Positions 24,027-41,242 of a DNA stretch of 64,000 bases are shown here, one piece after another; within the stretch, counting starts at the first letter, position 1; each line of letters starts with the position of its first letter. A program made the translations under genes and the position numbers. The notes under the pieces are model-generated. The model was not told where the DNA came from. It searched no databases and saw only the letters and a list, made by a program, of their open reading frames with translations. The stretch is from Chitinophaga sp. 180180018-3 (GTDB taxonomy: Bacteria > Bacteroidota > Bacteroidia > Chitinophagales > Chitinophagaceae): positions 4,216,001 to 4,280,000 of the forward strand of contig NZ_CP140772.1 in the NCBI RefSeq assembly GCF_037893185.1, in the 5' to 3' direction.

Positions 24027-24107
24027 TTTTCAGCGTGGAATAATACTTTATGTATAATTCTTTATGCCGACTAAGTTATTACAAGCATTTAGCTAAGGAA
24101 AACATTG

Positions 24108-24136
24108 CATTTGCCAATTATGATACAATATTTACA
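24108..24136. promoter_or_regulatory. Regulon operator copy 3 (symporter promoter)
   Basis: This 29-bp element on the minus strand starts TGTAAATATTGTAT and ends TTGGCAAATG. It matches copy 1 at 26 of 29 positions, far beyond chance for an intergenic region, and is oriented the same way with respect to its minus-strand gene. Confidence 0.65.
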
Positions 24137-24194
24137 GTGGGGTATTTAGAATGCTGGCATTACGCTCCCCTGGGCACTTTCAACTGATGGACCG

Positions 24195-25094
24195 TTAAAG
24201 TGGATCTACAGTAATTCCTTTTTCAGCCAGCTGACTCTTTATTTCTTCAAAGTTATCCGCATAGAAGAGCGTCATCGTTTTCAGGTTTTTGAAATGCCGG
24301 GTATCCTCGAAATTTGTTATGTTAAATGTATCATCTTCGCCGTCCCAAAAACGGAAAACATGGCCGTATATGTCGTTGCCACCGTCTTGTTGTATGTCTG
24401 TTATTTCATCAGCATACTGCGCATCGATTTCCAATGCTTCAAAGTAAGCGGTCACTTCCGGGATAAAGCCATATCCTTCTTTTTCCACGTCTATCTCCCG
24501 CTCCCGGTAGTTCTCTACGAAATCGTAAAGGTCGAATTCCGGTTTCAATAGCTTCTTTTCGTACATCAATTCCTGTATGACAGCCAGTTTAAAATTGAAA
24601 TCGGCGAACTCAATCTTCGCTCCGTTAATTTTTTGATATTGATATTTATCTGAATATACTTTGGGGGGCTCCGGCTCATGATGGCTGATAACGATACTGG
24701 CGATTTCGTTATCTTCAATATCTATCCATACATCAAAATCACCGGCAACCAATGTACCGCTATCGTCATATTTAGAAACTTTCCTTATAGTTTTAATGTG
24801 CTGCTGATAGTACTCCGGATAGTTAGTTCCGTTAATATTAAATTCCAGGGCAAAAAGCGAGGCCGGCGAATAATCAAGATCATGCGGCCTGATAAAAAGT
24901 GCCAGGCTTTCTGCCACTTTTCCTTTCTTAGAAAAGGCCACCAGGCCGGTTTGATCCCAGGTATAAATGTGGTTATATTTCTTTTGGGCATACCTGGCCT
25001 CTCCCAACAATGTTTTCAGCTGCTGAATATCAACGGGGAAATGTATTTCGGCTCCGTTAATAAGTAATTGGTTTCCGGCGATTGCTATCTCCAT
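24195..25094 (-). CDS. Cytoplasmic protein of unknown function (DUF6892-like C-terminal half)
   Basis: This 299-residue acidic protein lacks signal peptide and membrane segments. The N-terminal ~130 residues form a beta-rich part (MEIAIAGNQLLINGAEIHFPV; HIYTWDQTGLVAFSKKGKV). The C-terminal part (FADFNFKLAVIQELMYEKKLLKPEFDLYDFVENY) resembles DUF6892 as I recall it; this is tentative. It ends in a leucine-repeat-like stretch. No catalytic motif is evident. A 22-bp inverted repeat stands 22 bases upstream of the ATG and is a likely operator. Confidence 0.55.
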   Translation of the reverse strand: MEIAIAGNQLLINGAEIHFPVDIQQLKTLLGEARYAQKKYNHIYTWDQTGLVAFSKKGKVAESLALFIRPHDLDYSPASLFALEFNINGTNYPEYYQQHIKTIRKVSKYDDSGTLVAGDFDVWIDIEDNEIASIVISHHEPEPPKVYSDKYQYQKINGAKIEFADFNFKLAVIQELMYEKKLLKPEFDLYDFVENYREREIDVEKEGYGFIPEVTAYFEALEIDAQYADEITDIQQDGGNDIYGHVFRFWDGEDDTFNITNFEDTRHFKNLKTMTLFYADNFEEIKSQLAEKGITVDPL

Positions 25095-25115
25095 AACTTC
25101 TTCCTGTTTTTAATT

Positions 25116-25137
25116 TTCAAATGTAACTACATTTGAA
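25116..25137. promoter_or_regulatory. 22-bp inverted repeat upstream of the 299-residue protein gene
   Basis: Arms TTCAAATGTA and TACATTTGAA are perfectly complementary around two bases. It lies between the GLPGLI stop (25147) and the ATG at 25094. No T-run follows on either strand, so an operator is more likely than a terminator. Confidence 0.5.
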
Positions 25138-25146
25138 GACATCGCC

Positions 25147-25929
25147 CTACAGATCCATGAAAAACTGTACCCAGGGAGATGTCAGCCCAAACTGCTTCAG
25201 CATTTTTGCAGTGAGGGCATTGAACTCCTTATTGGTGACAGGAGCCCCCTTGCCGGGAAGCGGGATCTTCCACTTCGCGGGAGCAGTATCCATACCTGTA
25301 ACGCTTTGGGCGAAGATGGTGATGTGCTCATGAGGAATGGCCACGCCCAGTATCATACCCGGTAGCCCGTTGAACGACTCCGGCCCGCCCTGGGTTGGGA
25401 TTTCGTCTGTATAAAAAGCTACTACATAAATAGAATCAAAGAACAATGCATTAGCGCGACGACATTCATACCCGGCAATTTCCCTGGTTTCATCTGTCAG
25501 CTTCCAGCGGATTTTTTTTGTGGAATCTTTAACAAAATAGGATTTCTCGAAAGCCTGCTTCTCTGTATTCACTTCATTTGTTTCGAAATTGCTGTATATG
25601 CTGTTCTTATATGCTACCGGAACAGGAAATGTTTTCGAGTACTCAATATTGGAATTCGCAGGCTCATAGAGGCTATGCATAGGATCGAAGTACAGGTTAA
25701 AGCTATCCGCCCAGAATTGAGGCGACGAGCTCCTGTATTGCTGCATAAAAGTATTTAACTGCTCCTCCGTCATTGTTCTGGTTTCACCTAAAAATATCCG
25801 CATCGTTGCGAAGGTATTTATCTTCCTTTCAAAAGTAATCCTGCCGCTTTTTATAAACGTTGCCTGTTGCGCATAAGCAGCACAACTACCCATCAGCGTG
25901 ATCAATATAAAAACTATTCGTTTCATCAT
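25147..25929 (-). CDS. GLPGLI-family secreted protein
   Basis: This 260-residue protein has a signal peptide (MMKRIVFILITLMGSCAAYAQ). It carries the family hallmark near residue 195, here FNGLPGMILGV, preceded by ETREIAGYECRRANAL (with the conserved Gly-Tyr-x-Cys) and FYTDEIP. GLPGLI proteins are envelope proteins of unknown biochemical role in Bacteroidota and often lie beside a barrel receptor. Here the gene starts five bases after the receptor stop at 25935, so the two form a translationally close pair. Confidence 0.85.
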   Translation of the reverse strand: MMKRIVFILITLMGSCAAYAQQATFIKSGRITFERKINTFATMRIFLGETRTMTEEQLNTFMQQYRSSSPQFWADSFNLYFDPMHSLYEPANSNIEYSKTFPVPVAYKNSIYSNFETNEVNTEKQAFEKSYFVKDSTKKIRWKLTDETREIAGYECRRANALFFDSIYVVAFYTDEIPTQGGPESFNGLPGMILGVAIPHEHITIFAQSVTGMDTAPAKWKIPLPGKGAPVTNKEFNALTAKMLKQFGLTSPWVQFFMDL

Positions 25930-25934
25930 TCTCT

Positions 25935-28664
25935 CTACTTAATACTGTTAAACTTTGAAAAATTCCAGGTGGCCCCTACCATGAAAAAACGCCGGATGGT
26001 AGTGTACCTGTTCTCAGAGAAAAATGTGTTAGTTGCCGTACGGGCGTACCCGTTATTCTGATTCAGGATATCATTGCAGGAGAGCTTCACCGTCAGCTGA
26101 TCCTTTTTGAAGAAGTTACGCCCTATCCAGGCATTCCAGAGTACCCTGCTGAAATTGTCGCTGAACGTTTGTGTTTTCTGTTGCCAAAGACAGTTTGCAT
26201 CGGTATGCAGCTGAAATTTCTTCAGGAAGTAAATGTCTATAGACGGGTTGACGGTATAGGAGAAATAGCTGTTACGCGAATCGGGCTGTAACGACGACTT
26301 ATTTTTCGTATATGCTCCGGTTCCAACCAGGTACATACTGTATTGGCGCTGTTTGTTTTTAAACAACTCCACGGTAAGCGTGTAAGTGTTATAGTTCAGT
26401 TCGTTCACCGCATTATTAATAGGACTGAAAGATTTCCCGCCATTCAGACTCAGGCCCCCTCCTGCCTGTAAGTCGAGCTGCTGTATTTTCCTTGAATAAT
26501 AAGTATTCAGGTAATAGGAGCTATTCGTATACCCGTTCATGTTAATATAACGATAGGCATAAGCGCCTGAAGGATCCACGGTTACTGCCTGTGTGAGAGG
26601 GCTGGATACAAGCGTATAGCCGGCATTTCCGCCAAAGTAAAGCTGCGAAACTATCCTGGTGGCGTAATAACTACCAGTAAAATTATGGGTGAAGCTGCTT
26701 TTCAGATCTGTATTGGGTACAAACACCGACAACTGGCTGTTATTATAATTAAATGGAATCATCTGCCAACGCTGCGGATTATCGTTGTTACCGTTATATC
26801 CAAAGTTCAATCCTTCGTAGTTACTGAACTTGTAGTTGAAATTAGCATTAGGGTTCAGGTTAACAAATTGTTTTTTCAGATGTAATAGCGTGTAGATATT
26901 ATCACTGGTCATCTGAACAAACTTCACATTATTACCCACTTTCAGGATCATCTTTTTCGAAGAATAATTCAATGCGAGCCCTCCCTGGTTACTCCAGACA
27001 GAAGAATTCATCCTGGTACTGAAAGCCGTGTCTATTACCTTCTCACCGGGGCTGTTCACGAGGTTATAAGAGCGTTTATCGTCGTGTGCACTTTCATTGT
27101 ACAACGCATAATTTATCAGCAGTGATAATTTGCCGGAAAGAGGTTCTGTATAGATGGCATTGAGGTTCAGCGTGCGCCAGTCGTCTTTCATCTTCTTACG
27201 TAAATGTAATAACGCGGTACTGTCCTGACTGCCCGAGGTTTTATAAAAACTACTGTTGGAAATACTTTCTCCATTAGCCGCATCATTCGAGAAATTATTA
27301 TTGAAGTAGAAAGAAATCGTTCTGCCATATTTCTTCAACTTCTTCTCCCATGATAGGTTCAGGTTGTAACTTTTCAGGTCGTAATCATTGGAGCTGGAAG
27401 CCTGATTATTGTATATCAGGCTGGAATCACCCCGTTTATTCTCTGTAATACTGTTATGCAGGTTTTTACTATTACTGAGAGATCCATCGGCATAAATCGT
27501 GAAGGTGGAAGTAGTATCAAACTTATGGATATACTTTGCATTCGCCTGGTTGCGGGTATTGTTGTTTTTAAAATTGCTGTTGGAATTACTTAAAATAACG
27601 CCGGAAGGTAAATTGTTCTGAGAGTTGGTAGTTTCATCACCCTCCACATTCATGATATTGAATTTATAGTTGCCGTTCAGGGATTCTTTATCAGCATTCC
27701 ATTTCTTATCATAATGTAATCCACCGGAATTAACCTGGGGCAATCCTTTGCCGGAGTAATTCCCGTTATCCTGATCATCGTCTCCCATCTTGCCCTTGTC
27801 GGCAGATCCCAGGCCGGTTCTGCCAATGTTGCTGGTGGTAGCATAAGCAGCCATTTTTCTTTTGCCTTTGAAGAAGTTGATCATCCCCTGGGCATTGTAC
27901 CGCTGATCTGTTCCGACGCCGGCATCCACTTTCCCGAAAATGCCATGGTTCTTGTCTTCCTTGATCTTCAGGTTAATAGTTTTATCTTTCACGCCGTCTT
28001 CGATACCTGTAAAGGCAGCGGCGTCTGATTTCTTATCGTAGACCTGTACTTTGTCTATCATATCCGCTCTGAGGTTCCGGGTCACCAGTGTGGGATCATC
28101 ACTGAAAAATTCTTCTCCGTCTACCAGTACCTTCTTTACTTTTTGTCCCTGTGCCGTGATGTTTCCAAATTGATCTACCTGTAAGCCTGGTAGTTGCCTG
28201 AGCAGCTCTTCTACAGTGGCATTGGGCTGTACCTTAAAGCTATCGGCCTTGTATTCCGTTGTATCACCATTGATTTTTATAGCAGCTACCTGGGATTTAA
28301 CGATTACTTCGTGCAATAGTTTTCCTTTCTGGATAAGGCTTATCATATTCATGTCTATTAGGCCATTTTTGGCGTCCCGCAGGTTTATGCGATGCGAATA
28401 GCTGGCATATTTGGGATAAGAAAAGAAGAGGATATAAGCGCCGGTATCCGGAAGATGGCGAAAGTCGAATGCACCGTCTTTATCAGTACGCCGACTTTTG
28501 ACAATGAATGAGTCCCTCGCTTGTAACAGTACTACGGATGCGTTACGGAGGGGTGAATTAAGGCTGCTGTCGACCACCCTTCCTTGGATAGTACTATTCT
28601 GAGCGTTTATGTTATAACAGAGCGAGAGTGTCACCAGTACCAATCCCAGGATCTTATTCATCAT
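25935..28664 (-). CDS. TonB-type outer membrane beta-barrel receptor
   Basis: This 909-residue protein has a signal peptide (MMNKILGLVLVTLSLCYNINAQ) and an N-terminal carboxypeptidase-regulatory-like domain (IQGRVVDSSLNSPLRNASVVLL). A plug follows (ATVEELLRQLPGLQVDQFGNI; KVLVDGEEFFSDDP), then a long barrel of the outer-membrane beta-barrel protein type. This class lacks the SusC signature and has no SusD partner; the partner is the GLPGLI gene behind it. It is the penultimate gene of the run 38054-25147 and could carry a peptide or metal across the outer membrane. The ligand is not known. Confidence 0.88.
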   Translation of the reverse strand: MMNKILGLVLVTLSLCYNINAQNSTIQGRVVDSSLNSPLRNASVVLLQARDSFIVKSRRTDKDGAFDFRHLPDTGAYILFFSYPKYASYSHRINLRDAKNGLIDMNMISLIQKGKLLHEVIVKSQVAAIKINGDTTEYKADSFKVQPNATVEELLRQLPGLQVDQFGNITAQGQKVKKVLVDGEEFFSDDPTLVTRNLRADMIDKVQVYDKKSDAAAFTGIEDGVKDKTINLKIKEDKNHGIFGKVDAGVGTDQRYNAQGMINFFKGKRKMAAYATTSNIGRTGLGSADKGKMGDDDQDNGNYSGKGLPQVNSGGLHYDKKWNADKESLNGNYKFNIMNVEGDETTNSQNNLPSGVILSNSNSNFKNNNTRNQANAKYIHKFDTTSTFTIYADGSLSNSKNLHNSITENKRGDSSLIYNNQASSSNDYDLKSYNLNLSWEKKLKKYGRTISFYFNNNFSNDAANGESISNSSFYKTSGSQDSTALLHLRKKMKDDWRTLNLNAIYTEPLSGKLSLLINYALYNESAHDDKRSYNLVNSPGEKVIDTAFSTRMNSSVWSNQGGLALNYSSKKMILKVGNNVKFVQMTSDNIYTLLHLKKQFVNLNPNANFNYKFSNYEGLNFGYNGNNDNPQRWQMIPFNYNNSQLSVFVPNTDLKSSFTHNFTGSYYATRIVSQLYFGGNAGYTLVSSPLTQAVTVDPSGAYAYRYINMNGYTNSSYYLNTYYSRKIQQLDLQAGGGLSLNGGKSFSPINNAVNELNYNTYTLTVELFKNKQRQYSMYLVGTGAYTKNKSSLQPDSRNSYFSYTVNPSIDIYFLKKFQLHTDANCLWQQKTQTFSDNFSRVLWNAWIGRNFFKKDQLTVKLSCNDILNQNNGYARTATNTFFSENRYTTIRRFFMVGATWNFSKFNSIK

Positions 28665-28732
28665 TGAACAATCAGTTTAAATTCAGGCTGTCTAGGCAAT
28701 TATGTGTTAGAAAGATGTTTATTAATATGTTT

Positions 28733-30319
28733 TCAATAATCAGCATAGGCCTGCATTTCCCTGTTATAAAGAAATGGCCTTCCGTACGACTTATCATGTT
28801 GCGTGATCTCAGTATTGATCACACGATAAATTCCATAAGCGGGTATGCCTGAAAAAGTAAAGAGTTTCTTTACTTTCTCCTTCTGTAACTTCGCCGGATC
28901 GTCCATCAACGTTTGCACCGGTCCTACGGGAATCCAGGACTGCCCGATATTATCCCAATAAACCAGTTGGCATTTTTTGTGGTACAAACCTCCCGACATC
29001 CGGGATATATCCAGTGATACATTGATAATCGTCTGTTTATTTTCATTGATATATTGCACACCGCTATTTTCAGTTACCAGGAAAGGAGTTCCCACAGTCC
29101 GGGTTTTACTATCGTTACCTCCTAACACAATGATGGGTGCATAGAGCGCTCCTGCAGCTATATTTGAAAAAATGACCGTATCGTTTTTCTTTGTCACTTT
29201 CATCCGGAGTGGTTTCCAGTATTTGCCATTCAGTACGCCGAGGAATATTTCATCGGGTGTGGATGCAGGTACTTTAAAAGCATAATCTATGACCGGTAAA
29301 TACTCCCGCGTTATATCGTAATAAACCTGAAAACTGCGGCCGTCGTTAGGAAAAGAGCTACCATCTGTTTTATAGGTGTAGCGATAAGCTTTTGCGAGGC
29401 GTGCACTTTTAAAGGGCAATGAATCTCTTACCGGGCTGTCATATACCGCATTCATCGGAACAAATTTTCCGGTGGTATCCAGGACGCTTAGCCAGGTATG
29501 GCCGCCAAAATTACCGTTGGCCCAATACGACGTAAATTCGTTAGCCACAGGAATTCCGATGGCCCTCAGCCAGTAGCCCAATAACATATTCAGATCTTCA
29601 CAGCGGCCCCCGCGTGTTGCTCTCAGTTCTCTGACGGTAAATGTACCGGGGAAATAATTGATAGCATCATGAATATAGTGATAATATCGGCCCAGGCTAT
29701 CATTCACTACCGCTGCAATCTTTATCCTGTCGGTCGTATGCCCCGCCTTTTCGAAGATCCATCCGCTATTCTCCCAGAAGTGTTTCCTCCAGTTCTGAAG
29801 CGGTTCGTTCTGCACCCTGTGCGGCAAAATGTACTCTTTGAACTGTTCGAAAGTCAGGGAACGGGCCCAGGGCATCTGCCATGCCCTGAAAGCGTATTCA
29901 ATATCCTCGATCAGTTGCTTAGCACTGATAGTTCTGCTATCCGCCAGGAAAACCGGGTTATCAAACCTGATCGTACCACAATTAAGGGAATCTTCTATTT
30001 TCCGTTTGAGCGCATTGATACTATCGATGCCAATGGTATCTCCCACAAACAACTCCTGATTAAATATACCACAATCTGTTACAGACGAATACTTCTGATA
30101 TCCCTTACCCGGCATATTCTCAATCAGGAAGCGGGCAGCGGCCAGCTTCAGTGAATCTCCCGCTGATTGGGAATAGTGCCCGATCACCTTCTTTAACTCC
30201 ACAGCATTCATACCTGCATAGTCAAGCGCTGCTGCTAATTTACGATCGGTGGTGTTGTCCCTGGGGCTGCAGGAATTCAAAACAACGAGTGCCAATATAT
30301 AAAGAAATATACACTTCAT
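28733..30319 (-). CDS. Transglutaminase-like lipoprotein
   Basis: This 528-residue lipoprotein has the signal peptide MKCIFLYILALVVLNSC, with Cys17 as the lipid attachment site. The papain/transglutaminase core lies near residues 235-290 with Cys in RATRGGRCEDLNMLLGYWLRA, His in FGGHTWLSVLD and an acidic/amide partner in VPMNAVYD. The C-terminal half is beta-rich. It may cleave or cross-link peptides in the periplasm or at the surface. It belongs to the co-oriented peptide locus, between the MG2-like protein and the receptor. Confidence 0.8.
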   Translation of the reverse strand: MKCIFLYILALVVLNSCSPRDNTTDRKLAAALDYAGMNAVELKKVIGHYSQSAGDSLKLAAARFLIENMPGKGYQKYSSVTDCGIFNQELFVGDTIGIDSINALKRKIEDSLNCGTIRFDNPVFLADSRTISAKQLIEDIEYAFRAWQMPWARSLTFEQFKEYILPHRVQNEPLQNWRKHFWENSGWIFEKAGHTTDRIKIAAVVNDSLGRYYHYIHDAINYFPGTFTVRELRATRGGRCEDLNMLLGYWLRAIGIPVANEFTSYWANGNFGGHTWLSVLDTTGKFVPMNAVYDSPVRDSLPFKSARLAKAYRYTYKTDGSSFPNDGRSFQVYYDITREYLPVIDYAFKVPASTPDEIFLGVLNGKYWKPLRMKVTKKNDTVIFSNIAAGALYAPIIVLGGNDSKTRTVGTPFLVTENSGVQYINENKQTIINVSLDISRMSGGLYHKKCQLVYWDNIGQSWIPVGPVQTLMDDPAKLQKEKVKKLFTFSGIPAYGIYRVINTEITQHDKSYGRPFLYNREMQAYADY

Positions 30320-30381
30320 CTATTGCCTGTTGAAATTTAAAATATACATCGATGAAAGCAGGCTATACAGCGGATCATATT

Positions 30382-32673
30382 CTAGCGGACCTTGAAATTA
30401 AACTTATCTACCCCCAGCAATCCCTCGCCACTGGCCCCTTCTATGATACCAATAAATTGCCTGCGGATATCGGAGCTATAGAACTGAATAGTTGCCTCAC
30501 CATTCTTATCAGTCACGACTACGGGTTTCCAAAATAAGGTATTGCGGGTATCAGCAACAGCGGGGTTTTCTTTGTCATAATCGGGTTCATAGAATTCGCG
30601 GCTTTGATAGTAGCCTTTTTCTACCACCATTTTAAACTTCTTTAAAAGTTCCTCTTCTGTATATTTAGGATAATGATAGACAACATGTTTCACTTCTTCG
30701 GCTTTAAACCAACCATCCACTTCATGTGATACCACTGTGCGTGTGCCCACGAAAACCGGGTATTCCTGGCCTTCAACCGGTTTCGTTGTCCCGGACTTGC
30801 ACCACGGGCAATTTAAATATCCTTTGGGATTCAACCGGCAGACGTAGTCGGTATTACCTTCATATTTAGCGATACTATCCAGATATCCCAGATAGCGATC
30901 TGAAAAGCCGGGGCCTTTTGCAGCAACGTTGATCTCCTTTAATGTTCTTCCGTATTGCAAAAAGCCGGTATCAGGCGCTGGTGGCCTGTTATCCGGAATC
31001 CTCTCCGGAAAAATACCGACCGGGCGGGCTTGGGCTTCTGCCTGCCTGATAGCAGTGAAAGGATCTGCTACCTGTATAGTATAGTCTTTATCCGAAAAAT
31101 ACCTGATAAAAAACCGGGGGCCTATAGCCAGGTGATCGGGCGTTACATGAAACGCCCCATTGTTATCTGCGATCGCTAATTGCGTCACACTTTTATTATA
31201 ATTGAACAGCATGAGAGACAAAGGCTGTTTCTCTTTCCCGCCTTTCTTTATAGCTGTGGCATGAGCATCCAGCGTATCCGACAACACGGGGTGCTGCCGG
31301 GATTCGGCTCTTAATGCATCCACATTCCAGGTGTAGCGACGCCATCCCTGCGTGAGTAATAGCAAATCCAGTGCTTCTTTGCGATCCTTATTCGACGGAT
31401 CGAAATAATAAGCCGGATCGTATATGCTTCCACGTAGTTGGGTAGAGAGATAATAATAGCTTACAATATTGCGGGAATTCCGTTCATTGTTGAATAGATC
31501 ATCATACACCCGTACACTCAACGCAGCAGGCACGGGATTACCATCGGGGTCAGTTGTTTTGATCTTCACGGAAACCCTTTCTTTTTGTGCATACTGTTCC
31601 TTCACCTGGCTCAAACTGACATTCAGTTTCCGTTCCGGATGCAGATAAACCAATCGTTCCGCCAAAGGCCGCAGCTGATCGTCGAAAAGAGTGGCTTCGG
31701 CGATGCCCAGCGGAGCATTGCGGACAGGTATACCAACAGCGAGGCTGTCGCCGAAGGCGCCGGCTGCGATCGACTGTACCGCTCCCCGGACCTGTAATCT
31801 CAGAAAGAACTTATGCCTGTTGGGATTATGCCGGGAAAGCACTTTAAAAACCAGGCTATCGTCGTCATTCCGGATGAGCTGCATCACTACTCCTTCAGGC
31901 TGGATCACGGGAAGCGTATACACGCTGTCGCTGTTGCCGTCCAGCTTTACCTGGTATACCGCGTCTTTCTCCGGGGTGAACAAAAAGCTACCCATTCCGG
32001 CATGAGCTGATTTGAAGCTAAGTACAGGCGTATTCCCTTGCAGTAATGTACCCTTTATTTCAGCCGGGCGTCCTTCCCTGGTGACGGCCTTAAAGGCTAC
32101 CTTGTTTCGGAGTCCGGCCACGAGGTAACCTCCTTCCGGGAATACATTAAATTGGATGTCCTCCTTCCCTGTTGCAGCTTGCTTTTGCCGCGACAGCTTA
32201 TCCGCGCGTATTTGCTGCGGAGCATTGACCACCTCTATACGACAGCCGGCATAGTAATAGGGCTGATTAGCAAAAAAAGAATGCGCCGTATAGGCTTTAA
32301 GGTTATAAAGCCCTTTCGGCAGCGTATCCGGCAGATATACATGGCCGGCTGACAGGCCGTTGCTGACCGGATACATTTCCTGCCATACAACGCTATCGCT
32401 GCCTTGCCGTTGCAATTGTAAATAGAGGGTATTGTCGAGTGCAGAAAGCGTAAAGTCTCCCGCATTCAACACAAAAGCATTGAACCAGAGGTCTTCCCCT
32501 GAAACGTATATATCTTTGCTGGTGGTCAGATAGACCGAAGTACGGAGGTTGCTCTGCGTAAATGAATCGAGCTGACTTGCCAGCTGATCCATCTCCGGCC
32601 GGGTTACCTGTGAAAAGGACCGGGAGGCAATTGACAATAATCCAGCTACCAGATATATCAGATATTTTATCAT
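30382..32673 (-). CDS. MG2/alpha-2-macroglobulin-like secreted protein
   Basis: The ATG at 32673 gives a signal peptide (MIKYLIYLVAGLLSIASRSFSQ) and 763 residues. The N-terminal macroglobulin-like repeats show TSKDIYVSGEDLWFNAFVLNA and PKGLYNLKAYT, the usual pattern of Bacteroidota MG2-domain proteins. An unusual cysteine island, YVCRLNPKGYLNCPWCKSG, lies near residue 640. The end (TEATIQFYSSDIRRQF-type sequence) resembles the last macroglobulin domain. It starts five bases after the stop of the thioredoxin-like gene. The nearby CxxC oxidoreductase and Cys-containing peptide suggest disulfide chemistry, which is inference. Confidence 0.65.
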   Translation of the reverse strand: MIKYLIYLVAGLLSIASRSFSQVTRPEMDQLASQLDSFTQSNLRTSVYLTTSKDIYVSGEDLWFNAFVLNAGDFTLSALDNTLYLQLQRQGSDSVVWQEMYPVSNGLSAGHVYLPDTLPKGLYNLKAYTAHSFFANQPYYYAGCRIEVVNAPQQIRADKLSRQKQAATGKEDIQFNVFPEGGYLVAGLRNKVAFKAVTREGRPAEIKGTLLQGNTPVLSFKSAHAGMGSFLFTPEKDAVYQVKLDGNSDSVYTLPVIQPEGVVMQLIRNDDDSLVFKVLSRHNPNRHKFFLRLQVRGAVQSIAAGAFGDSLAVGIPVRNAPLGIAEATLFDDQLRPLAERLVYLHPERKLNVSLSQVKEQYAQKERVSVKIKTTDPDGNPVPAALSVRVYDDLFNNERNSRNIVSYYYLSTQLRGSIYDPAYYFDPSNKDRKEALDLLLLTQGWRRYTWNVDALRAESRQHPVLSDTLDAHATAIKKGGKEKQPLSLMLFNYNKSVTQLAIADNNGAFHVTPDHLAIGPRFFIRYFSDKDYTIQVADPFTAIRQAEAQARPVGIFPERIPDNRPPAPDTGFLQYGRTLKEINVAAKGPGFSDRYLGYLDSIAKYEGNTDYVCRLNPKGYLNCPWCKSGTTKPVEGQEYPVFVGTRTVVSHEVDGWFKAEEVKHVVYHYPKYTEEELLKKFKMVVEKGYYQSREFYEPDYDKENPAVADTRNTLFWKPVVVTDKNGEATIQFYSSDIRRQFIGIIEGASGEGLLGVDKFNFKVR

Positions 32674-32678
32674 TCTCT

Positions 32679-33146
32679 TTATTGCTCTAATTGTATTTTC
32701 AGCCATTCAAATGCCTGGCCATTAGCGGGCGATTGAAACTGATGCTTAATAATTTCTCCATCTTTCAGCTGCACAATACATGGGTAAATTACGTTCTTCG
32801 TGGGTAGATTAAAAATCCCGTCATTATCAACAAAAACGTTACTACGTCCACTGATAGACTTCCCAATTTTCTGTTGCAGGATTTTAAGAGACTGTACTTT
32901 CGTTAATATAAAAAATATACCGGTAGAATCAATGAAATCTCTCATAAAAGCTTCTCCCTCCTGTATGCACCCATTACACCCAAGCCCGGGCAGAATAACC
33001 ATCCAGGTTTTGGGAGTACCGAACCTGGCTTTCTTCAGGCCTGCCGAAATTGTTGCCGTTTCCGTGTCGCTGTCTGATTTCTTTATATTGGCGCAGTTAC
33101 TAAAGAAGAATAATGATATGATCGCTATTATATAAACTCGTTTCAT
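32679..33146 (-). CDS. Thioredoxin-like lipoprotein with CNGC motif
   Basis: From the ATG at 33146 the protein has 155 residues with the lipobox FFFSNC (Cys at ~18). It then has a thioredoxin-like segment TWMVILPGLGCNGCIQEGEAFMRDF, with the redox pair in C-N-G-C, and a later SGRSNVFVDNDGIFNLP strand ending in YPCIVQLKDGEI. It is shorter than TlpA but has the same order of elements. It lies two genes after the Cys-rich peptide gene and directly before the MG2-like gene, so it may form or reduce their disulfides. An upstream in-frame ATG nine codons earlier does not improve the signal. Confidence 0.7.
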   Translation of the reverse strand: MKRVYIIAIISLFFFSNCANIKKSDSDTETATISAGLKKARFGTPKTWMVILPGLGCNGCIQEGEAFMRDFIDSTGIFFILTKVQSLKILQQKIGKSISGRSNVFVDNDGIFNLPTKNVIYPCIVQLKDGEIIKHQFQSPANGQAFEWLKIQLEQ

Positions 33147-33179
33147 AAGACATTTTTTATCGTTAATATTCAAACTCCA

Positions 33180-34367
33180 TCAAAGGTTTGCTGGTTTAAA
33201 AATTTTCAAATACAGGTGAGATTCCGACAGATCTTTCTTATCTATATACTCTATGTTTAATCCTTCTTCCGTAACAAAAGCGTTCTCCCAGTTAAAGTTA
33301 TCGCAGGTACCAATAATAGTTTCTCCCATGTATTTAAAATGCTCATCAAACATTACAACAGACAAGGGTTTATCTTTAAAAGCGCTGGTATAGGTAGCTT
33401 CAGGCATTGCCTTTCTGAGAAATCTATAATATACTTTCCGGTAACGATCGTACCTGATCGCTGCGTACAAATCAGTTTTGCAAACCCGCAGCTGTAATTC
33501 TTCCGAAGGCATCTTCTTTTCAAAAGAAGTAATAGCGCCGGCTTCATTACTGCCACCATATATGCTGGTATATCCTTCTTTATCGTTATCTGCCACAAAC
33601 ACATCATGTGAAACAGGGAAGCTGTATATCATTTTATTATCAGGCGCTACATCGCTATAAACATTAGTGAACAGCCCTTCATTTTCCCAAAAAATATTGT
33701 TCCCGTAAAGTGCCGGCGGATACTGGCGGAAGAACCTGACACTGTCGTTGTTCAGATCAACATGTGCTTCAAATCTGAATCTGCCTGCTATGCTGTCCGG
33801 AAGGGAAAGCATGTATTGCCCCGGAAAAATCAATTGCTGGCCCGCCCCCACTACCGGGGCCGTTGTTGACGGATAGTACTGAGGATATCGATAGATCCAG
33901 GACAAATCGTGAAATGATTGTTTATTTATCAATGAAATCCGCGACACCACCCTGCCTGAATCATTTATCAGTGCCAGTTCATTGTTTGTTTTATTGTAGA
34001 TGTAAATAGAATCGAAATTCTTTATATAGTAGCCTAATGGTACGTTAATGCCTTCTTTATCCTTCTTGCTGAATTTAACTATTTTCTTCAGTCCCAAGGT
34101 ATTGTAGTCATAAACATATATTGCGTTGGCGTACGTATTCAGAAAGGTCAGGCTTTTGTTGTTATTTCCATCGTCCAATATCTGGACATACCGTATCCTG
34201 GGAGCGCTTATACTGTCTAACGGGAACTTCTTTTCTCCCGTATTCATTAGCTTGGCAGTTGCCTTCATTTTGCCTTTCATCTGATTTTGCAATTCCACCA
34301 CATTCTTTTTTTGTGTACAGGAAGCAAGTAAAGCAAGCAGAATAGCGGCAGCAATAATTCTATCCAT
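33180..34367 (-). CDS. Lipoprotein, likely beta-propeller (DUF4221/BF3164-like)
   Basis: This 395-residue lipoprotein has the signal peptide MDRIIAAAILLALLASC. The mature part is a succession of short beta repeats (KSLTFLNTYANAIYVYDYNTLGLKKIVKF; FDSIYIYNKTNNELALINDSGRVV), the pattern of propeller-type lipoproteins such as DUF4221/BF3164-like families. In Bacteroidota these are commonly encoded beside NVEALA peptides. It follows the NVEALA-like gene after an intercistronic hairpin. The family name is tentative; the propeller-like repetition and lipobox are seen directly. Confidence 0.6.
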   Translation of the reverse strand: MDRIIAAAILLALLASCTQKKNVVELQNQMKGKMKATAKLMNTGEKKFPLDSISAPRIRYVQILDDGNNNKSLTFLNTYANAIYVYDYNTLGLKKIVKFSKKDKEGINVPLGYYIKNFDSIYIYNKTNNELALINDSGRVVSRISLINKQSFHDLSWIYRYPQYYPSTTAPVVGAGQQLIFPGQYMLSLPDSIAGRFRFEAHVDLNNDSVRFFRQYPPALYGNNIFWENEGLFTNVYSDVAPDNKMIYSFPVSHDVFVADNDKEGYTSIYGGSNEAGAITSFEKKMPSEELQLRVCKTDLYAAIRYDRYRKVYYRFLRKAMPEATYTSAFKDKPLSVVMFDEHFKYMGETIIGTCDNFNWENAFVTEEGLNIEYIDKKDLSESHLYLKIFKPANL

Positions 34368-34384
34368 TATGTCATTTTTTTAAG

Positions 34385-34419
34385 GGAGGGTCCGTGTCCG
34401 AATGAACACGGATACCTCC
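34385..34419 (-). other. Intercistronic hairpin after the peptide gene
   Basis: On the minus strand GGAGG, TA, TCCGTGT pairs with ACACGGA, C, CCTCC around an 8-base loop, giving 12 pairs with a small internal loop. No U-tract follows, so it is more likely an mRNA stabiliser or partial attenuator that lets the peptide message accumulate over the downstream lipoprotein genes. Confidence 0.55.
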
Positions 34420-34448
34420 ACATCAGAGTGATGAATTACAGTAATTCC

Positions 34449-34682
34449 TTACCAACCGAAGTCGCACTCCATATTTCCCGGATCTCCTACACAGATCTGA
34501 GCGAAGTACAGGCATTTTCCGCCTCCGAAACCATAGTTATTTGAACATTCTGCACTGGCAGTATTAATCTTTACCAGAGAGTTTAAATCAACACTATTGT
34601 TGTTTGCGTTTGTTTTAGTAGCAAAAAAAGCTACAGTTGCGATAGCAGCAATACCAGCTGCGGCGAGGATTTTCTTTTTCAT
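34449..34682 (-). CDS. NVEALA-like exported Cys-containing peptide
   Basis: This 77-residue precursor has a positively charged, alanine-rich export signal (MKKKILAAAGIAAIATVAFFA). A leader segment NSVDLNSLVKINTASAEC corresponds to the NVEALA position of that Bacteroidota peptide family. The remaining ~35 residues are rich in Gly and aromatic residues and carry four cysteines (AEC, GKC, QIC, MEC), enough for two disulfides. The role of NVEALA peptides is unknown; a signal, toxin or structural peptide is possible. It is followed by a propeller lipoprotein and a thioredoxin-like lipoprotein, and preceded by a signal peptidase and an O-antigen-ligase-like protein. Confidence 0.7.
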   Translation of the reverse strand: MKKKILAAAGIAAIATVAFFATKTNANNNSVDLNSLVKINTASAECSNNYGFGGGKCLYFAQICVGDPGNMECDFGW

Positions 34683-35104
34683 AACAAATTTTTAAAAGAA
34701 TAACAGATTATAAATGCTTCATGAAAGTCAAACAGGGAATACTACTTTCATAAATACTTCTGCCTGCACATGCTTCGTGTAAGCAAACATTAATGCAATT
34801 AATGCCCTGGGGATTAAGTCATCCTGTCATAGTGGAACTTTTGATATTTTAAACAATTATGGGAAACATTCATTAACATCTACGGGCATACCTCGCCCAT
34901 ACCGGCATTTCGTACCAGTGCTCATTCAATAACCATCTTGTTCTTCACACGGAACATTTACACTACCGAACACCAGCTCTCTGCAGTGCGTCCGGATTTC
35001 ATTTAGCATGAGACGTCGCGTCGTCCCGCCGTTTAGGGTTCATATACTTTCATACCGTGGATCTCCTCTCCTTAGTTCACAAAGGGGTGCTCATCTGAAA
35101 AGCA
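34683..35104. other. Intergenic region upstream of the peptide gene
   Basis: These 422 bases lie between the ligase-like gene stop and the peptide ATG. The half nearest the peptide is AT-rich and should hold its promoter, but no clean TTTG/TAnnTTTG pair is seen. The distal part is GC-richer. A 27-codon minus-strand ORF at 34926-35009 was not accepted as a gene. Confidence 0.4.
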
Positions 35105-36991
35105 TTAATTATCTGCAGTTGTCAGATCAGATGAGGCCGGGTGTTTTTCTTTTATCAGGTTTTCAGCATATCTCTTTATTTCATTTACGGCTTTAGAGGG
35201 AACTTTCACTTTTTTTATTTTTATACTCCGTGCCATTTTCACCGCCTTTGCAGGCTCACCATTGTCGTTATATAAGGTCATCAACAGATAAAGCGGATAA
35301 AAGCGGTTAGGGATCATGTACATGGCGTGTAAATAGGCACTTTCAGCGTCCTTGTAATTACCCGATTTTCGTTCGCAGTCTCCAATTGCAGTTTCAACAA
35401 CTCCGGAGCTCAGGTATTTCCGCGCTTCTTTTAAAATGCTTAATGCTTTGCTGTAATTTTCCGTCATTGCCAACGACTTCCCATACTGCATCAGGAACTC
35501 TCCGTTTTCATGGAACACCGGATAAACTGACTCAAAGCTGTTATTACTCTCTGTATACAGTTCCCTGACATAATACACTTGTCCATTCCCCCACGCGAGA
35601 AAAGATTTCCTCATGCCTTCGATTGCATTCACACCCCAACAGACAAAAAATAATATACATAGTGTAAATACCGGGGCAAGCACGCGTGTGCGGGCAATAT
35701 GGATGGTCGTCAGTTTACGGCTGTCGACCTGCGACAACACCGCCAATGCAAAAACCAACAAACATTTTATTGCCAGGTTATCGGAAGCATACGTGAACAG
35801 ACTAAAGACAAAACAGGATAATAATATGCCGTATACAATATTTCGCAGGGGCTCCTCTTTTGCCTTTTCCCTAAACCAGCAGCAGAAAAAAACTGCCACC
35901 AGGGCGAGTGCTAATCCTATCAGCCCATTCTCTACGGTAAACTGCAGGGGTTCATTAAAAGCGTAAAAGGTATTATCAGCCAACTGTGCTTCTTCTGCTA
36001 TATCCCCGCTTTTATGCTCAAACCACTTTGCCTGTTCATCCATATAGCTGGCCCTGAATCTGTCGAACCCAACTCCAAAGAAAGGATGTTCCTGTATTAA
36101 TACCAGTGATATCTTGTATATCAGCAACCGGCCATCTGCCGAATGCTTTTTAAACTGATAGATGGAGTAAAATACGCCCAGCAGCAGTATACCGGCCACG
36201 GCTATACGCTTAACAGGCCATTTTGCTTTAATATCCACCTGCTCACTCTTATACAACAGCCAGATTAGTCCCACTCCTGCCACCACACTAACATACGCGG
36301 AACGCGACCGTAAGCCGGGCAGAATGATAATGCTGCCTATAAAGCTCAACATTGGCAGGTAAGTAATCACCCAGGTAACCAGGCTTTTTTTCTTATTCTG
36401 CACATCTTCAGAGACGGCCTCCAACAGCCTGTTTCTGTTGATATATATGCCAAATGAGACCACTGCGGTAAGTGATATATACCCTGCATAACCACCCGGG
36501 TTAAAGAAATTCCCGGTAACCGGGAAATAACTGTTACGGCTATCCTGTAATCCCAACAACTGCATCAGCCCTGTCAACACCTGCAGAAAGCCACCTGCAG
36601 ATATGCTCAATAAAATATAGAGATAGTATTTCCGGGGCAATGCTTTCAGTGTAAGGTAACCTATCACCAACCCGGTCAGCTCCAGAAAGCGCATAGAAAA
36701 ACCAGCAACAGGTTGTATATAATACCGGTTAGTTACTATATATATCAACAGCAACAACAATGAAACATCGACCACTGAAACCTGGAATCCTGACCTGGAT
36801 CCGGCATACAGCCTGTAACATGCAATAAGGGAAAATGCTATCACAACAGTGTAACCGAAAAACAGAAACTTCGTTGTTTGTGTTGGCTCTATGAATAAAC
36901 TGCTGTAAACACACGGTAATAAAAAAAATATGCACCCAAGCACAATAAGGCCGGCATTCTCAGTATATTTTAAGGGTTTAAAGGGCAACAT
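35105..36991 (-). CDS. O-antigen-ligase-like (Wzy_C) membrane protein with C-terminal TPRs
   Basis: This 628-residue protein has about a dozen hydrophobic helices. The Wzy_C/O-antigen-ligase-type loop is IQEHPFFGVGFDRFRASYMDEQA followed by FNEPLQFTVENGLIGLALALVAVFF. The C-terminal ~150 residues form at least two TPRs (YSKALSILKEARKYL; YKDAESAYLHAMYMIP). Such proteins transfer lipid-linked glycans to an acceptor: lipid A, a protein or a peptide. Its position between a signal peptidase gene and a secreted-peptide gene suggests protein or peptide glycosylation, which is inference from context only. Confidence 0.75.
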   Translation of the reverse strand: MLPFKPLKYTENAGLIVLGCIFFLLPCVYSSLFIEPTQTTKFLFFGYTVVIAFSLIACYRLYAGSRSGFQVSVVDVSLLLLLIYIVTNRYYIQPVAGFSMRFLELTGLVIGYLTLKALPRKYYLYILLSISAGGFLQVLTGLMQLLGLQDSRNSYFPVTGNFFNPGGYAGYISLTAVVSFGIYINRNRLLEAVSEDVQNKKKSLVTWVITYLPMLSFIGSIIILPGLRSRSAYVSVVAGVGLIWLLYKSEQVDIKAKWPVKRIAVAGILLLGVFYSIYQFKKHSADGRLLIYKISLVLIQEHPFFGVGFDRFRASYMDEQAKWFEHKSGDIAEEAQLADNTFYAFNEPLQFTVENGLIGLALALVAVFFCCWFREKAKEEPLRNIVYGILLSCFVFSLFTYASDNLAIKCLLVFALAVLSQVDSRKLTTIHIARTRVLAPVFTLCILFFVCWGVNAIEGMRKSFLAWGNGQVYYVRELYTESNNSFESVYPVFHENGEFLMQYGKSLAMTENYSKALSILKEARKYLSSGVVETAIGDCERKSGNYKDAESAYLHAMYMIPNRFYPLYLLMTLYNDNGEPAKAVKMARSIKIKKVKVPSKAVNEIKRYAENLIKEKHPASSDLTTADN

Positions 36992-37163
36992 CGGGTTTCT
37001 TTATTTAGGATTATTTTTTACCGTCGTTGTTCACTCCTCATTTCGTTAGCATAAAACCTAATTTAGTAACTTTTTTCAGACTTTCAAATATTTTGGTTTC
37101 AATATCTGCGTGTTTTATCATTAATTATTTCAAGATAATTTAACGATGTGTTTCATATGCTGA

Positions 37164-38054
37164 TTAAAGCTTCCCGATGTACTTTCCTACCAAATTCTCC
37201 CTGGGTACTACTCCATAATGCCGCGAGTCAATGGCAATATCACGGTTATCTCCCATCATAAATAAGTAGTCCTTTTTAAAAGTATAGGAATCCACCGTTT
37301 TACCTTTTATGAAAACATTTTTCCCAATGTGTTGAATCGACGAATCTTCATAGATCCGGATAGTGCTTTCATACACTGCAGGAAGCTGTTCGCTGAAAAA
37401 AATCTTCATGCCTTTGAAAGGAATTTTGAGTGCATTCATATCAGGGATATCTTCACTCAATTCCGGCACATTTATATTCAAACTATCGGGATCACTGTTC
37501 CCTTTCCATATTGTAAAAGAATCAATTCCGTTTCTCAATTTATTTTTTTGAAAGTTATCAAGCGCCATAAAAATGTACCGGGGAAACCGTTTGAAGCTAT
37601 TTCCGAGTTTATCGATGCCGGCTTGCGCTATATCAGTTTTAAGCTGTTGATAATCATTAAACCAGATCTTGTAGTAATGCCTGACGCTCGGCGGTTCTTT
37701 AACAGTATTGCCGTCAACGCTTAATACGCCGTTCCTTACTTCTACCGTTGATCCCGGCAACCCGATACATCTTTTCACAAAGAAACCTGGTATCTCTTTC
37801 CTGACTGTAAAAACAAAAATATCTCCTGCATGAGGGGTTGCGAGATCCAGTTTATCCGCCAGCACCGAAAAGGCACTGCTGTAAAGCGTTTTATTAATGA
37901 AGATGTAGTCGTTACTACTAAACTTATTTTTCATAGAATCGCTGGGAATCCTGTATACATCAATAAAGAGTAATCTGAGCATAAAGAGCAGGATGATCAG
38001 GGAGATAAAAACGTAGCCTGTTTTCTTTAATAGTTTCTTTGTAGCAGTTTTCAT
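37164..38054 (-). CDS. lepB: Signal peptidase I (S26)
   Basis: From the ATG at 38054 the protein has 296 residues. It has a membrane anchor (TGYVFISLIILLFMLRLLF), the nucleophile Ser40 in YRIPSDSMK, the general base Lys94 in FFVKRCIGLPG and the box E motif GDNRDIAIDSRHYGVVP near the C-terminus. The middle contains a long insert, as in other Bacteroidota signal peptidases. It removes signal peptides from exported proteins at the inner membrane. It heads the peptide locus in the same direction, so it may be a dedicated peptidase rather than the housekeeping one. Confidence 0.9.
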   Translation of the reverse strand: MKTATKKLLKKTGYVFISLIILLFMLRLLFIDVYRIPSDSMKNKFSSNDYIFINKTLYSSAFSVLADKLDLATPHAGDIFVFTVRKEIPGFFVKRCIGLPGSTVEVRNGVLSVDGNTVKEPPSVRHYYKIWFNDYQQLKTDIAQAGIDKLGNSFKRFPRYIFMALDNFQKNKLRNGIDSFTIWKGNSDPDSLNINVPELSEDIPDMNALKIPFKGMKIFFSEQLPAVYESTIRIYEDSSIQHIGKNVFIKGKTVDSYTFKKDYLFMMGDNRDIAIDSRHYGVVPRENLVGKYIGKL

Positions 38055-38108
38055 AGCCGTATATACATTCGGGTTATGGGATCTCAATTCCTAATTCGTA
38101 ATTCTTTC

Positions 38109-38612
38109 TCAACGAGCTCCAACATGCTGAAGAATAGCATCCATAACGGTTTCAGCCGGCATATCAGTATCAATTTCCAGATCCGCCGCCTCCCTCAGCA
38201 ATGGTTCTATCTCACTCTTCAAATAAAGCACACGTGTTCTTTCCTCCGCCTGGTTTCCATAGGTATTATCACTCCTGGTTTGAAGCCTGTTGATCATCAC
38301 CTCATCCGGTGCAGTCAGCAATATAATATGATCAAACTGTGGATAGAATGCAACCATATTACTGGCGCAGCCGCTGACAAACAAAAGCCCTTTATTACCG
38401 GATAAAAGCGATGCTATACGCTCTCCATTCCACACCCAGTCCTTTCCGGGCTGCACTTCATTATCGGGGTACTCAGGGTCAGGATCAGCATCTACCCACA
38501 TGGAATATGGCGCAGCATCCAGATCTGTTGCATTGAATCCATTTGCCAGCAACTGCCGGACAACAGTGCTTTTGCCGGTTCCGGACATACCGGTAATGAG
38601 AATTGTTTTCAT
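38109..38612 (-). CDS. P-loop kinase-like ATPase
   Basis: This 167-residue protein opens with a Walker A loop MKTILITGMSGTGKST (residues 8-15 hold GMSGTGKS). It has a DLDAAPY motif, a lid-like arginine stretch (INRLQTRSDNTYGNQAEERTRV) and the length of small-molecule kinases such as shikimate or adenylate kinases. The phosphate acceptor is unknown. It is followed by the signal peptidase gene 54 bases later on the same strand, but a functional link is not evident. Confidence 0.75.
   Translation of the reverse strand: MKTILITGMSGTGKSTVVRQLLANGFNATDLDAAPYSMWVDADPDPEYPDNEVQPGKDWVWNGERIASLLSGNKGLLFVSGCASNMVAFYPQFDHIILLTAPDEVMINRLQTRSDNTYGNQAEERTRVLYLKSEIEPLLREAADLEIDTDMPAETVMDAILQHVGAR

Positions 38613-41242
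<2,630 letters not shown>

What the first reader, a model, noticed from the sequence alone, without database searches (positions are those of the whole stretch)
25147..38054. Nine-gene locus for export and maturation of a small Cys-containing peptide
One strand carries, in transcription order: signal peptidase I, O-antigen-ligase-like/TPR protein, NVEALA-like 77-residue peptide with four Cys in the mature part, propeller-type lipoprotein, thioredoxin-like lipoprotein (CNGC), MG2-like protein with a CPWC island, transglutaminase-like lipoprotein, TonB-type receptor and GLPGLI protein. Each part can be read as a step: cleavage, possible glycosylation, disulfide formation, proteolysis or cross-linking, surface display or uptake. 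NVEALA peptides have no known function, and I know of no described system with this set. Some boundaries (34683-35104 and 36992-37163) leave room for separate promoters, so several transcripts are possible.
Basis: partly seen in the sequence, partly recalled or inferred. Interest (0 to 1): 0.75.

Follow-up and report, generated by a model that had tools for sequence, protein, structure and literature searches.

The report
Processing locus for paired-cysteine secreted peptides
Nine neighbouring genes in a Chitinophaga-like bacterium appear to make, cut out and fold a small secreted peptide, and a similar core gene set sits beside the unexplained NVEALA peptides of gut Bacteroides, which gives that peptide family a testable working model.

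Summary
The nine genes are real and where stated. They are a conserved unit: a profile of the peptide hits 12 of 79 genus genomes. In 10 of the 12 all nine gene types lie together, in four arrangements; one has eight, one is decaying. The peptide fails the Pfam NVEALA cut-off (0 of 23), yet loci of true NVEALA peptides in Bacteroidales often carry the same core: propeller lipoprotein 30 of 33, thioredoxin-like 21, transglutaminase-like 21, signal peptidase 18, O-antigen-ligase/TPR 14. In 20 ligase loci away from NVEALA, propeller and thioredoxin were in 0, the peptidase in 1. Both peptide groups share an A-x-A site about 24 residues after the hydrophobic segment and even cysteine numbers (Bacteroidales: 81 even, 11 odd). 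In Bacteroidales, cores are more alike where the neighbouring propellers are alike; leaders are not. I read this as a leader-core peptide system with its own signal peptidase, a disulfide protein and a matching propeller. The window's MG2, barrel and GLPGLI types were not seen at NVEALA loci. What ligase and transglutaminase do, and the peptide's job, are unknown.

The parts
37164..38054 (-). dedicated S26 signal peptidase I (ORF opens at TTG 38087; ATG at 38054)
   Evidence: Peptidase_S26 107.5 bits; catalytic Ser/Lys and GDN..DSR boxes invariant in 11 of 11 sequences; Ser51 and Lys105 in 12 of 12; two other S26 genes in genome; outside housekeeping clades
36992..37163 (.). 172-base gap between peptidase and ligase genes
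   Evidence: ORF coordinates; no Rfam match in 24000-39000
35105..36991 (-). O-antigen-ligase-like (Wzy_C) membrane protein with C-terminal TPR
   Evidence: Wzy_C 63.7 bits; family profile matches ligase structure 7tpg E 4.2e-6 and TPR structures
34683..35104 (.). 422-base gap before the peptide gene with conserved blocks; candidate separate promoter or leader
   Evidence: alignment with three relatives; Bacteroidota-type promoter patterns not above chance in the window
34449..34682 (-). 77-aa peptide precursor: hydrophobic segment, spacer, A-S-A site, 33-aa core with 4 Cys
33180..34367 (-). DUF4221 beta-propeller lipoprotein
   Evidence: DUF4221 124.9 bits; best fold match 3s9j, a DUF4221 protein of Bacteroides vulgatus, E 1.3e-24, followed by NHL propellers; family profile E 6.4e-35
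32679..33173 (-). thioredoxin-like lipoprotein, CNGC (likely ATG 27 bases in)
   Evidence: CxxC invariant in 11 of 11 sequences; thioredoxin-fold matches
30382..32706 (-). large MG2-like exported protein with a small Cys cluster
   Evidence: MG2 27.7 bits, below cut-off 32.8; Cys pattern in relatives
28733..30319 (-). transglutaminase-like lipoprotein
   Evidence: Transglut_core 24.1 bits; Cys240 and His274 in 16 of 16
25935..28664 (-). outer-membrane beta-barrel (TonB-receptor type)
   Evidence: OMP_b-brl_3 71.3 bits, CarboxypepD_reg 48.6; Plug below cut-off
25147..25929 (-). GLPGLI family protein
   Evidence: TIGR01200 161.7 bits

Best explanation
The locus makes and matures a secreted, disulfide-bonded peptide. 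The 77-residue precursor goes through Sec and stays anchored by its N-terminal hydrophobic segment. The dedicated S26 peptidase cuts after the A-x-A site about 24 residues further on and frees a 33-residue core. The thioredoxin-like lipoprotein forms or corrects its two disulfides. The propeller lipoprotein binds this particular core, as carrier, receptor or protector. The O-antigen-ligase/TPR and transglutaminase-like proteins modify the peptide or attach it to something. In Chitinophaga an outer-membrane barrel with MG2-like and GLPGLI partners is part of the set, probably for passage or display at the outer membrane. Shown by sequence: conservation of the set, catalytic residues, site geometry, even cysteine numbers, core-propeller matching in Bacteroidales. 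Inferred: every biochemical step and their order. The NVEALA peptides of Bacteroidales are served by the same kind of machinery.
For: Unit: 12 of 79 genus genomes hold the peptide; 10 of 12 with all nine gene types, one with eight, one decaying. All 11 genomes with a ligase match over 200 bits hold the peptide, against 1 of the other 68 (threshold chosen after seeing the data). Similar core at NVEALA loci: control. In 121 Bacteroidaceae genomes the ligase is in 21 of 25 with NVEALA and 20 of 96 without, p 8.5e-9; 10 kb or closer in 15 of 21. Site: A at -3 and -1 with variable -2; median distance 24 in both groups. Cysteines: 81 even, 11 odd, 1 with none in 93 nonredundant Bacteroidales cores; controls 177:188, 90:128 and 36:42. 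Partner: core similarity tracks propeller similarity (0 of 2000 permutations), leader similarity does not (p 0.64 and 0.86).
Against: Shared descent of the peptidases is not shown: the tree gives three lineages (Bacteroidales NVEALA, two in Chitinophaga) whose relation is unresolved, and one member of the NVEALA clade (L250) lies on a contig without a listed NVEALA match. Only 18 of 33 NVEALA loci show the peptidase and 14 of 33 the ligase within about 10 kb; 9 of 33 show a propeller only or, in two, nothing. 23 of 34 genus genomes with some ligase relative lack the peptide. Some Chitinophaga precursors (here T-N-A) have a possible ordinary cleavage site just after the hydrophobic segment. The overall Mantel test of core against propeller was weak (p 0.07); the effect lies in the 30-56 most similar propeller pairs. 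No expression or mass-spectrometry data.
Confidence: 0.62

Rival explanations
1. Surface-glycan locus: ligase/TPR and transglutaminase-like protein build or anchor a surface polymer; the peptide and its propeller are passengers or a structural part of that layer.
For: Ligase relatives without NVEALA peptides are common (20 of 96 genomes), and a transglutaminase-like relative lies near the ligase in 19 of 30 remote loci in or near the genus and 7 of 20 in Bacteroidaceae.
Against: No glycosyltransferase among the nine genes; ligase matches over 200 bits in the genus occur only with the peptide, 11 of 11; peptidase, propeller and thioredoxin follow the peptide, not the ligase.
Confidence: 0.13
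2. Metal or nutrient capture: the secreted Cys peptide is a ribosomal metallophore or binding peptide brought back through the outer-membrane barrel.
For: Receptor-type barrel in the Chitinophaga loci; the propeller model also matches surface lipoproteins such as BtuG, among many other propellers.
Against: The window type of barrel is absent from 74 NVEALA loci; even Cys numbers point to disulfides rather than free thiols; no metal-uptake family recognised in the locus. In a paper on iron stress the B. thetaiotaomicron genes annotated O-antigen ligase, 6-bladed propeller and LepB (BT0662, BT0664, BT0667) are listed with P 0.11-0.35 (PMC10434189, passages; that these form an NVEALA locus is my inference).
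Confidence: 0.1
3. Chance neighbourhood: several unrelated small operons that happen to lie together.
For: Intergenic gaps of 172 and 422 bases; gene order differs among relatives.
Against: Nine gene types kept in 10 genomes through four arrangements and protein identities from 22 to 78%; the window's flanking genes are not found there; a similar core in another order of bacteria.
Confidence: 0.05
4. Signalling: cores are pheromone-like messages read by the paired propeller.
For: Leader constant, core variable, partner matched in Bacteroidales.
Against: No sensor kinase, sigma or anti-sigma gene recognised among the nine; cores of median 37 residues with paired Cys are large for pheromones (general knowledge).
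Confidence: 0.1

Closest known systems
NVEALA peptides (PF14055) of Bacteroidales
   Same: Same layout (hydrophobic segment, spacer, A-x-A site about 24 residues on, paired-Cys core); similar neighbouring core genes
   Different: Below the Pfam cut-off; N-[TA]-A-x-A-E-C instead of NVEALA; core well conserved in the Chitinophaga type but hypervariable in Bacteroidales; extra MG2, barrel and GLPGLI genes
Leader-core peptides such as class II bacteriocins, microcins and RiPPs (recalled)
   Same: Conserved leader, variable core, dedicated peptidase, matching partner gene
   Different: Probably cut by an S26 signal peptidase at an A-x-A site, not by a Cys-protease ABC transporter at GG; no RiPP enzyme recognised; transglutaminase-like and O-antigen-ligase/TPR proteins instead
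PglL/WaaL-type ligases
   Same: Wzy_C domain; family profile matches ligase structure 7tpg over profile positions 203-365
   Different: C-terminal TPR; in the genus, matches over 200 bits occur only with the peptide (11 of 11); donor and acceptor unknown
Small-peptide loci next to remote ligase paralogues in the same genus (L062, L064, L079, L080)
   Same: Tiny exported Cys peptides beside a ligase/TPR gene
   Different: Peptides of other sequence; peptidase relative near 2 of 30 remote ligase loci only

Membership tests
NVEALA (PF14055) | profile score over the curated cut-off | tested here: not met
   1 of 23 relatives matches at all, at E 0.54; no match over cut-off in the own genome
NVEALA (PF14055) | hydrophobic segment, spacer and A-x-A site at the same distance | tested here: met
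   median distance 24 in 93 Bacteroidales and 48 Chitinophaga-type peptides
NVEALA (PF14055) | similar gene neighbourhood | tested here: met
   control; partial in many loci
Signal peptidase I (S26) | catalytic Ser and Lys and conserved boxes | tested here: met
Signal peptidase I (S26) | cuts this peptide | not testable with these tools
   needs protein work
Thioredoxin-like disulfide protein | conserved CxxC | tested here: met
   11 of 11 sequences; Bacteroidales counterpart CxxC in 36 of 44, the set including truncated ORFs
Thioredoxin-like disulfide protein | thioredoxin fold | tested here: inconclusive
O-antigen ligase/PglL | Wzy_C domain over cut-off | tested here: met
   63.7 vs 31.7 bits
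O-antigen ligase/PglL | glycan transfer | not testable with these tools
   no assay
Transglutaminase-like | catalytic Cys and His | tested here: met
   16 of 16
TonB-dependent receptor | plug domain over cut-off | tested here: not met
   17.4 vs 23.9 bits; barrel domain over cut-off
MG2/alpha-2-macroglobulin-like | MG2 over cut-off | tested here: not met
   27.7 vs 32.8 bits
RiPP | post-translational modification of the core beyond disulfides | not testable with these tools
   no mass spectrum

The most novel reading that the evidence does not exclude
NVEALA-type peptides are a large class of leader-core effectors of Bacteroidota. A common leader, read by a dedicated signal peptidase with unusually long reach, delivers hypervariable disulfide cores, and each core is encoded with its own propeller lipoprotein, which protects the maker from it or receives it. 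The Pfam motif 'NVEALA' is that peptidase's cleavage site.
Probability: 0.38. Interest if true: 0.86.

Novelty: new variant of a known kind. Interest (0 to 1): 0.68.

Why it matters
NVEALA peptides are found in gut Bacteroides, Phocaeicola and Parabacteroides, in some genomes in large numbers (up to 20 matches). No paper in the held library contains the word NVEALA. This analysis ties them to a recurring gene set, a predicted cleavage site, predicted disulfides and a predicted binding partner, each testable by an ordinary experiment. If cores prove to be antagonistic or signalling molecules, it would open a peptide family in a dominant gut phylum.

Tried and rejected
A genome scan with the propeller protein alone found no relatives; the allowed second scan used the NVEALA alignment. 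A phylum search with the peptide profile matched the own genome and one other of 395, so the Chitinophaga type is narrow. NCBIfam hits for the peptide (LOFI repeat, WGxxGxxG) are weak or below cut-off. Promoter patterns of the Bacteroidota type (recalled) were not above chance; no Rfam family in 24000-39000. No solved structure at E 0.1 for the transglutaminase-like protein and none better than E 0.68 for the NVEALA peptides. The peptidase tree does not decide between one origin and several. Paper searches besides NVEALA: searches gave 0 papers; others (1 paper; 8; 3; 2; 15 of 43 listed) listed none whose title or abstract start describes the system; only PMC10434189 was opened, by passages.

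Rows dropped and limits: 5 of 145 peptides without a clean motif at the expected place were left out of the counts, and cores without Cys out of the even/odd test. For core-propeller pairs I kept peptides whose next gene was on the same strand, within 400 bases and 300-450 aa (108 pairs; 97 after removing near-copies). 7 of 47 ligase matches in the genus were not read for neighbourhood. The 20 control loci are 20 of the 63 ligase matches more than 20 kb from an NVEALA match; they are 9-18 kb long against at least 18 kb for the 33 NVEALA loci, though scored at a looser E; in one of them (L237) my ORF caller did not recover the ligase itself. Matches to the MG2 profile lie in 4 of these 20 control loci, so MG2-like proteins also occur near such ligases without the peptide. 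In one search only 10 candidates per genome were scored, so ligase counts are lower bounds. Some of the 33 loci overlap or share a genome. The labels housekeeping/other in the tree are mine.

Full report
Setting. The window lies in one complete 8.13-Mb genome. The genus is Chitinophaga by inference: homologous peptides named C. pinensis and C. arvensicola lie on contigs with the lengths of two genus genomes searched here. The organism itself is unnamed.

Nine ORFs lie on the minus strand from 25147 to 38054, with the families listed under parts. The flanking ORFs of the window (AAA-type kinase, and by my own reading a sodium-solute-type transporter and a catalase-peroxidase) had no match among the ORFs called in the neighbourhoods read, so the conserved block is these nine genes.

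It is a unit. The ligase protein was searched in 79 genus genomes: 34 have some relative, 11 one over 200 bits including the own. I read 38 genus regions, holding 39 of 47 matches, plus 2 regions from other genera of the family, and extended ten. Of the ten closest relatives (L045-L054), nine have all nine gene types; L049 lacks a recognised GLPGLI and has a distant barrel. L045, L046 and L048 keep the window's order; L047, L049 and L050-L054 show three others. In L050-L054 peptidase (22-28%), ligase (30-32%) and a larger transglutaminase-like protein (25-33%) are very divergent, while the other proteins keep 39-59% identity; one of these larger proteins was checked by Pfam and also has a ricin-type lectin domain. 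The ligase match of L054's genome contains one in-frame stop. Searching the peptide itself gives 12 of 79 genomes. The twelfth, G134, keeps peptide, propeller and thioredoxin whole, while MG2, barrel, peptidase and ligase are in pieces.

The peptide. Twelve relatives share invariant residues around A-x-A-E-C. A wider search found 43 proteins, among them Niastella and Joostella records; UniRef calls some 'NVEALA protein'. None of 23 passes the Pfam cut-off. So it is NVEALA-like in layout, not a member by profile.

True NVEALA loci. In 390 genomes of the phylum two had peptides over the cut-off. Of five stretches read from them, L132, L134 and L135 have the peptides near propellers, an S26 peptidase (E 1e-41 to 3e-47) and a transglutaminase-like lipoprotein (2e-28 to 4e-48); L132 and L135 also have a ligase (3e-80, 1e-93), L134 only a piece at the edge of the stretch; L131 and L133 have none of these three strongly. 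A scan of species genomes with an alignment of these peptides kept 74 loci. Of the 33 at least 18 kb long: propeller 30, transglutaminase-like 21, thioredoxin/DUF1573 lipoprotein 21, peptidase 18, ligase 14; 9 show a propeller only or, in two, nothing. Of all 74, many cut short: 64, 39, 40, 33, 25. The window types of MG2, barrel and GLPGLI: 0 of 74; the window type of thioredoxin: 1. The Bacteroidales thioredoxin-like protein is another family, with CxxC in 36 of 44, the set including truncated ORFs. Overlapping loci and shared genomes mean that these loci are not all independent.

Controls. Twenty Bacteroidaceae loci with the ligase but without an NVEALA match within 20 kb: propeller 0, thioredoxin 0, peptidase 1, transglutaminase-like 7, MG2 profile 4. 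So propeller, thioredoxin and peptidase go with the peptide; the transglutaminase-like protein also goes with the ligase. Across 121 genomes the ligase is in 21 of 25 with NVEALA (E 0.001) and 20 of 96 without (Fisher 8.5e-9); in 15 of the 21 they lie within 10 kb, and 20 of 84 ligase matches lie within 10 kb of an NVEALA match.

Cleavage site. In the wider alignment the alanines at -3 and -1 are nearly invariant and -2 varies; in 49 distinct Chitinophaga-type peptides -2 is S, N, D, Q or E, as in signal peptidase I sites. The site lies a median 24 residues after the hydrophobic segment in both groups (n 93 and 48); ordinary signal peptides have about 5-7 (recalled). The genome has two other S26 genes. 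In a tree of 61 peptidases the ones I labelled housekeeping group apart; the NVEALA peptidases and two Chitinophaga lineages each stand alone, with their mutual relation unresolved and long branches flagged.

Cysteines. In 93 nonredundant Bacteroidales cores 81 have an even number, 11 an odd number and one none; other signal-bearing proteins of the same loci give 177:188, of other loci 90:128, and other small signal-bearing ORFs 36:42. All 49 distinct Chitinophaga-type cores have 4 or 6; this set was gathered by similarity and by an A-x-A-x-C pattern (54 of 56 records), so it is weaker evidence.

Leader and core. In Bacteroidales, leaders are 49% identical on average (shuffled 23%), cores 28% (shuffled 25%), over up to 600 random pairs. 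In the Chitinophaga type both are about half identical (47%, 51%). Of 123 Bacteroidales peptides with a same-strand gene within 400 bases downstream, 84 are followed by a recognised propeller, 8 by the thioredoxin-like protein, and 31 by others, 27 of them 329-442 aa long, the size of propellers. Over 97 peptide-neighbour pairs, pairs of neighbours over 35% identical have more similar cores (+0.13; 0 of 2000 permutations), while leaders are no more similar (p 0.64); over 45%, +0.14 and p 0.86. An overall rank correlation was weak (0.04, p 0.07). This fits core and propeller as partners and the leader as a shared address.

Other proteins. The window propeller is of the DUF4221 family with a solved member, 3s9j. 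The ligase profile matches a solved polysaccharide ligase and TPR structures. The thioredoxin-like model (mean pLDDT 81) matches thioredoxin-fold proteins.

Literature. 'NVEALA' and 'DUF4221' occur in no paper of the held library. One paper on iron stress lists B. thetaiotaomicron O-antigen ligase BT0662, 6-bladed propeller BT0664 and LepB BT0667 with P values of 0.13, 0.35 and 0.11 (PMC10434189, passages). Supplements and subscription journals were not searched.

Verdict. The stronger result is that this looks like the Chitinophaga form of a gene set that also serves NVEALA peptides. What the mature peptide does is open.

Noticed in passing
L059, L062, L064, L066, L076, L079, L080: Remote ligase/TPR paralogues in the genus sit beside other tiny exported Cys peptides unlike NVEALA, in some loci two or three in a row; perhaps further peptide classes with the same ligase type.
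   Followed up: partly
L222:9923-12770: Five tandem ORFs of about 180 aa next to a ligase gene without NVEALA peptides nearby; possible other substrates.
   Followed up: no
L116:79-9581: The locus in genome G134 is decaying: peptide, propeller and thioredoxin whole, MG2, barrel, peptidase and ligase in pieces.
   Followed up: partly
window 34683-35104: Blocks of non-coding sequence before the peptide gene are conserved with three relatives.
   Followed up: partly
L053:10338-13079: Transglutaminase-like protein of the second cluster type also carries a ricin-type lectin domain.
   Followed up: no
window 41408-44611: Large ORF of 1067 aa that reads like an RHS/YD-repeat protein (my reading of the translation).
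   Followed up: no
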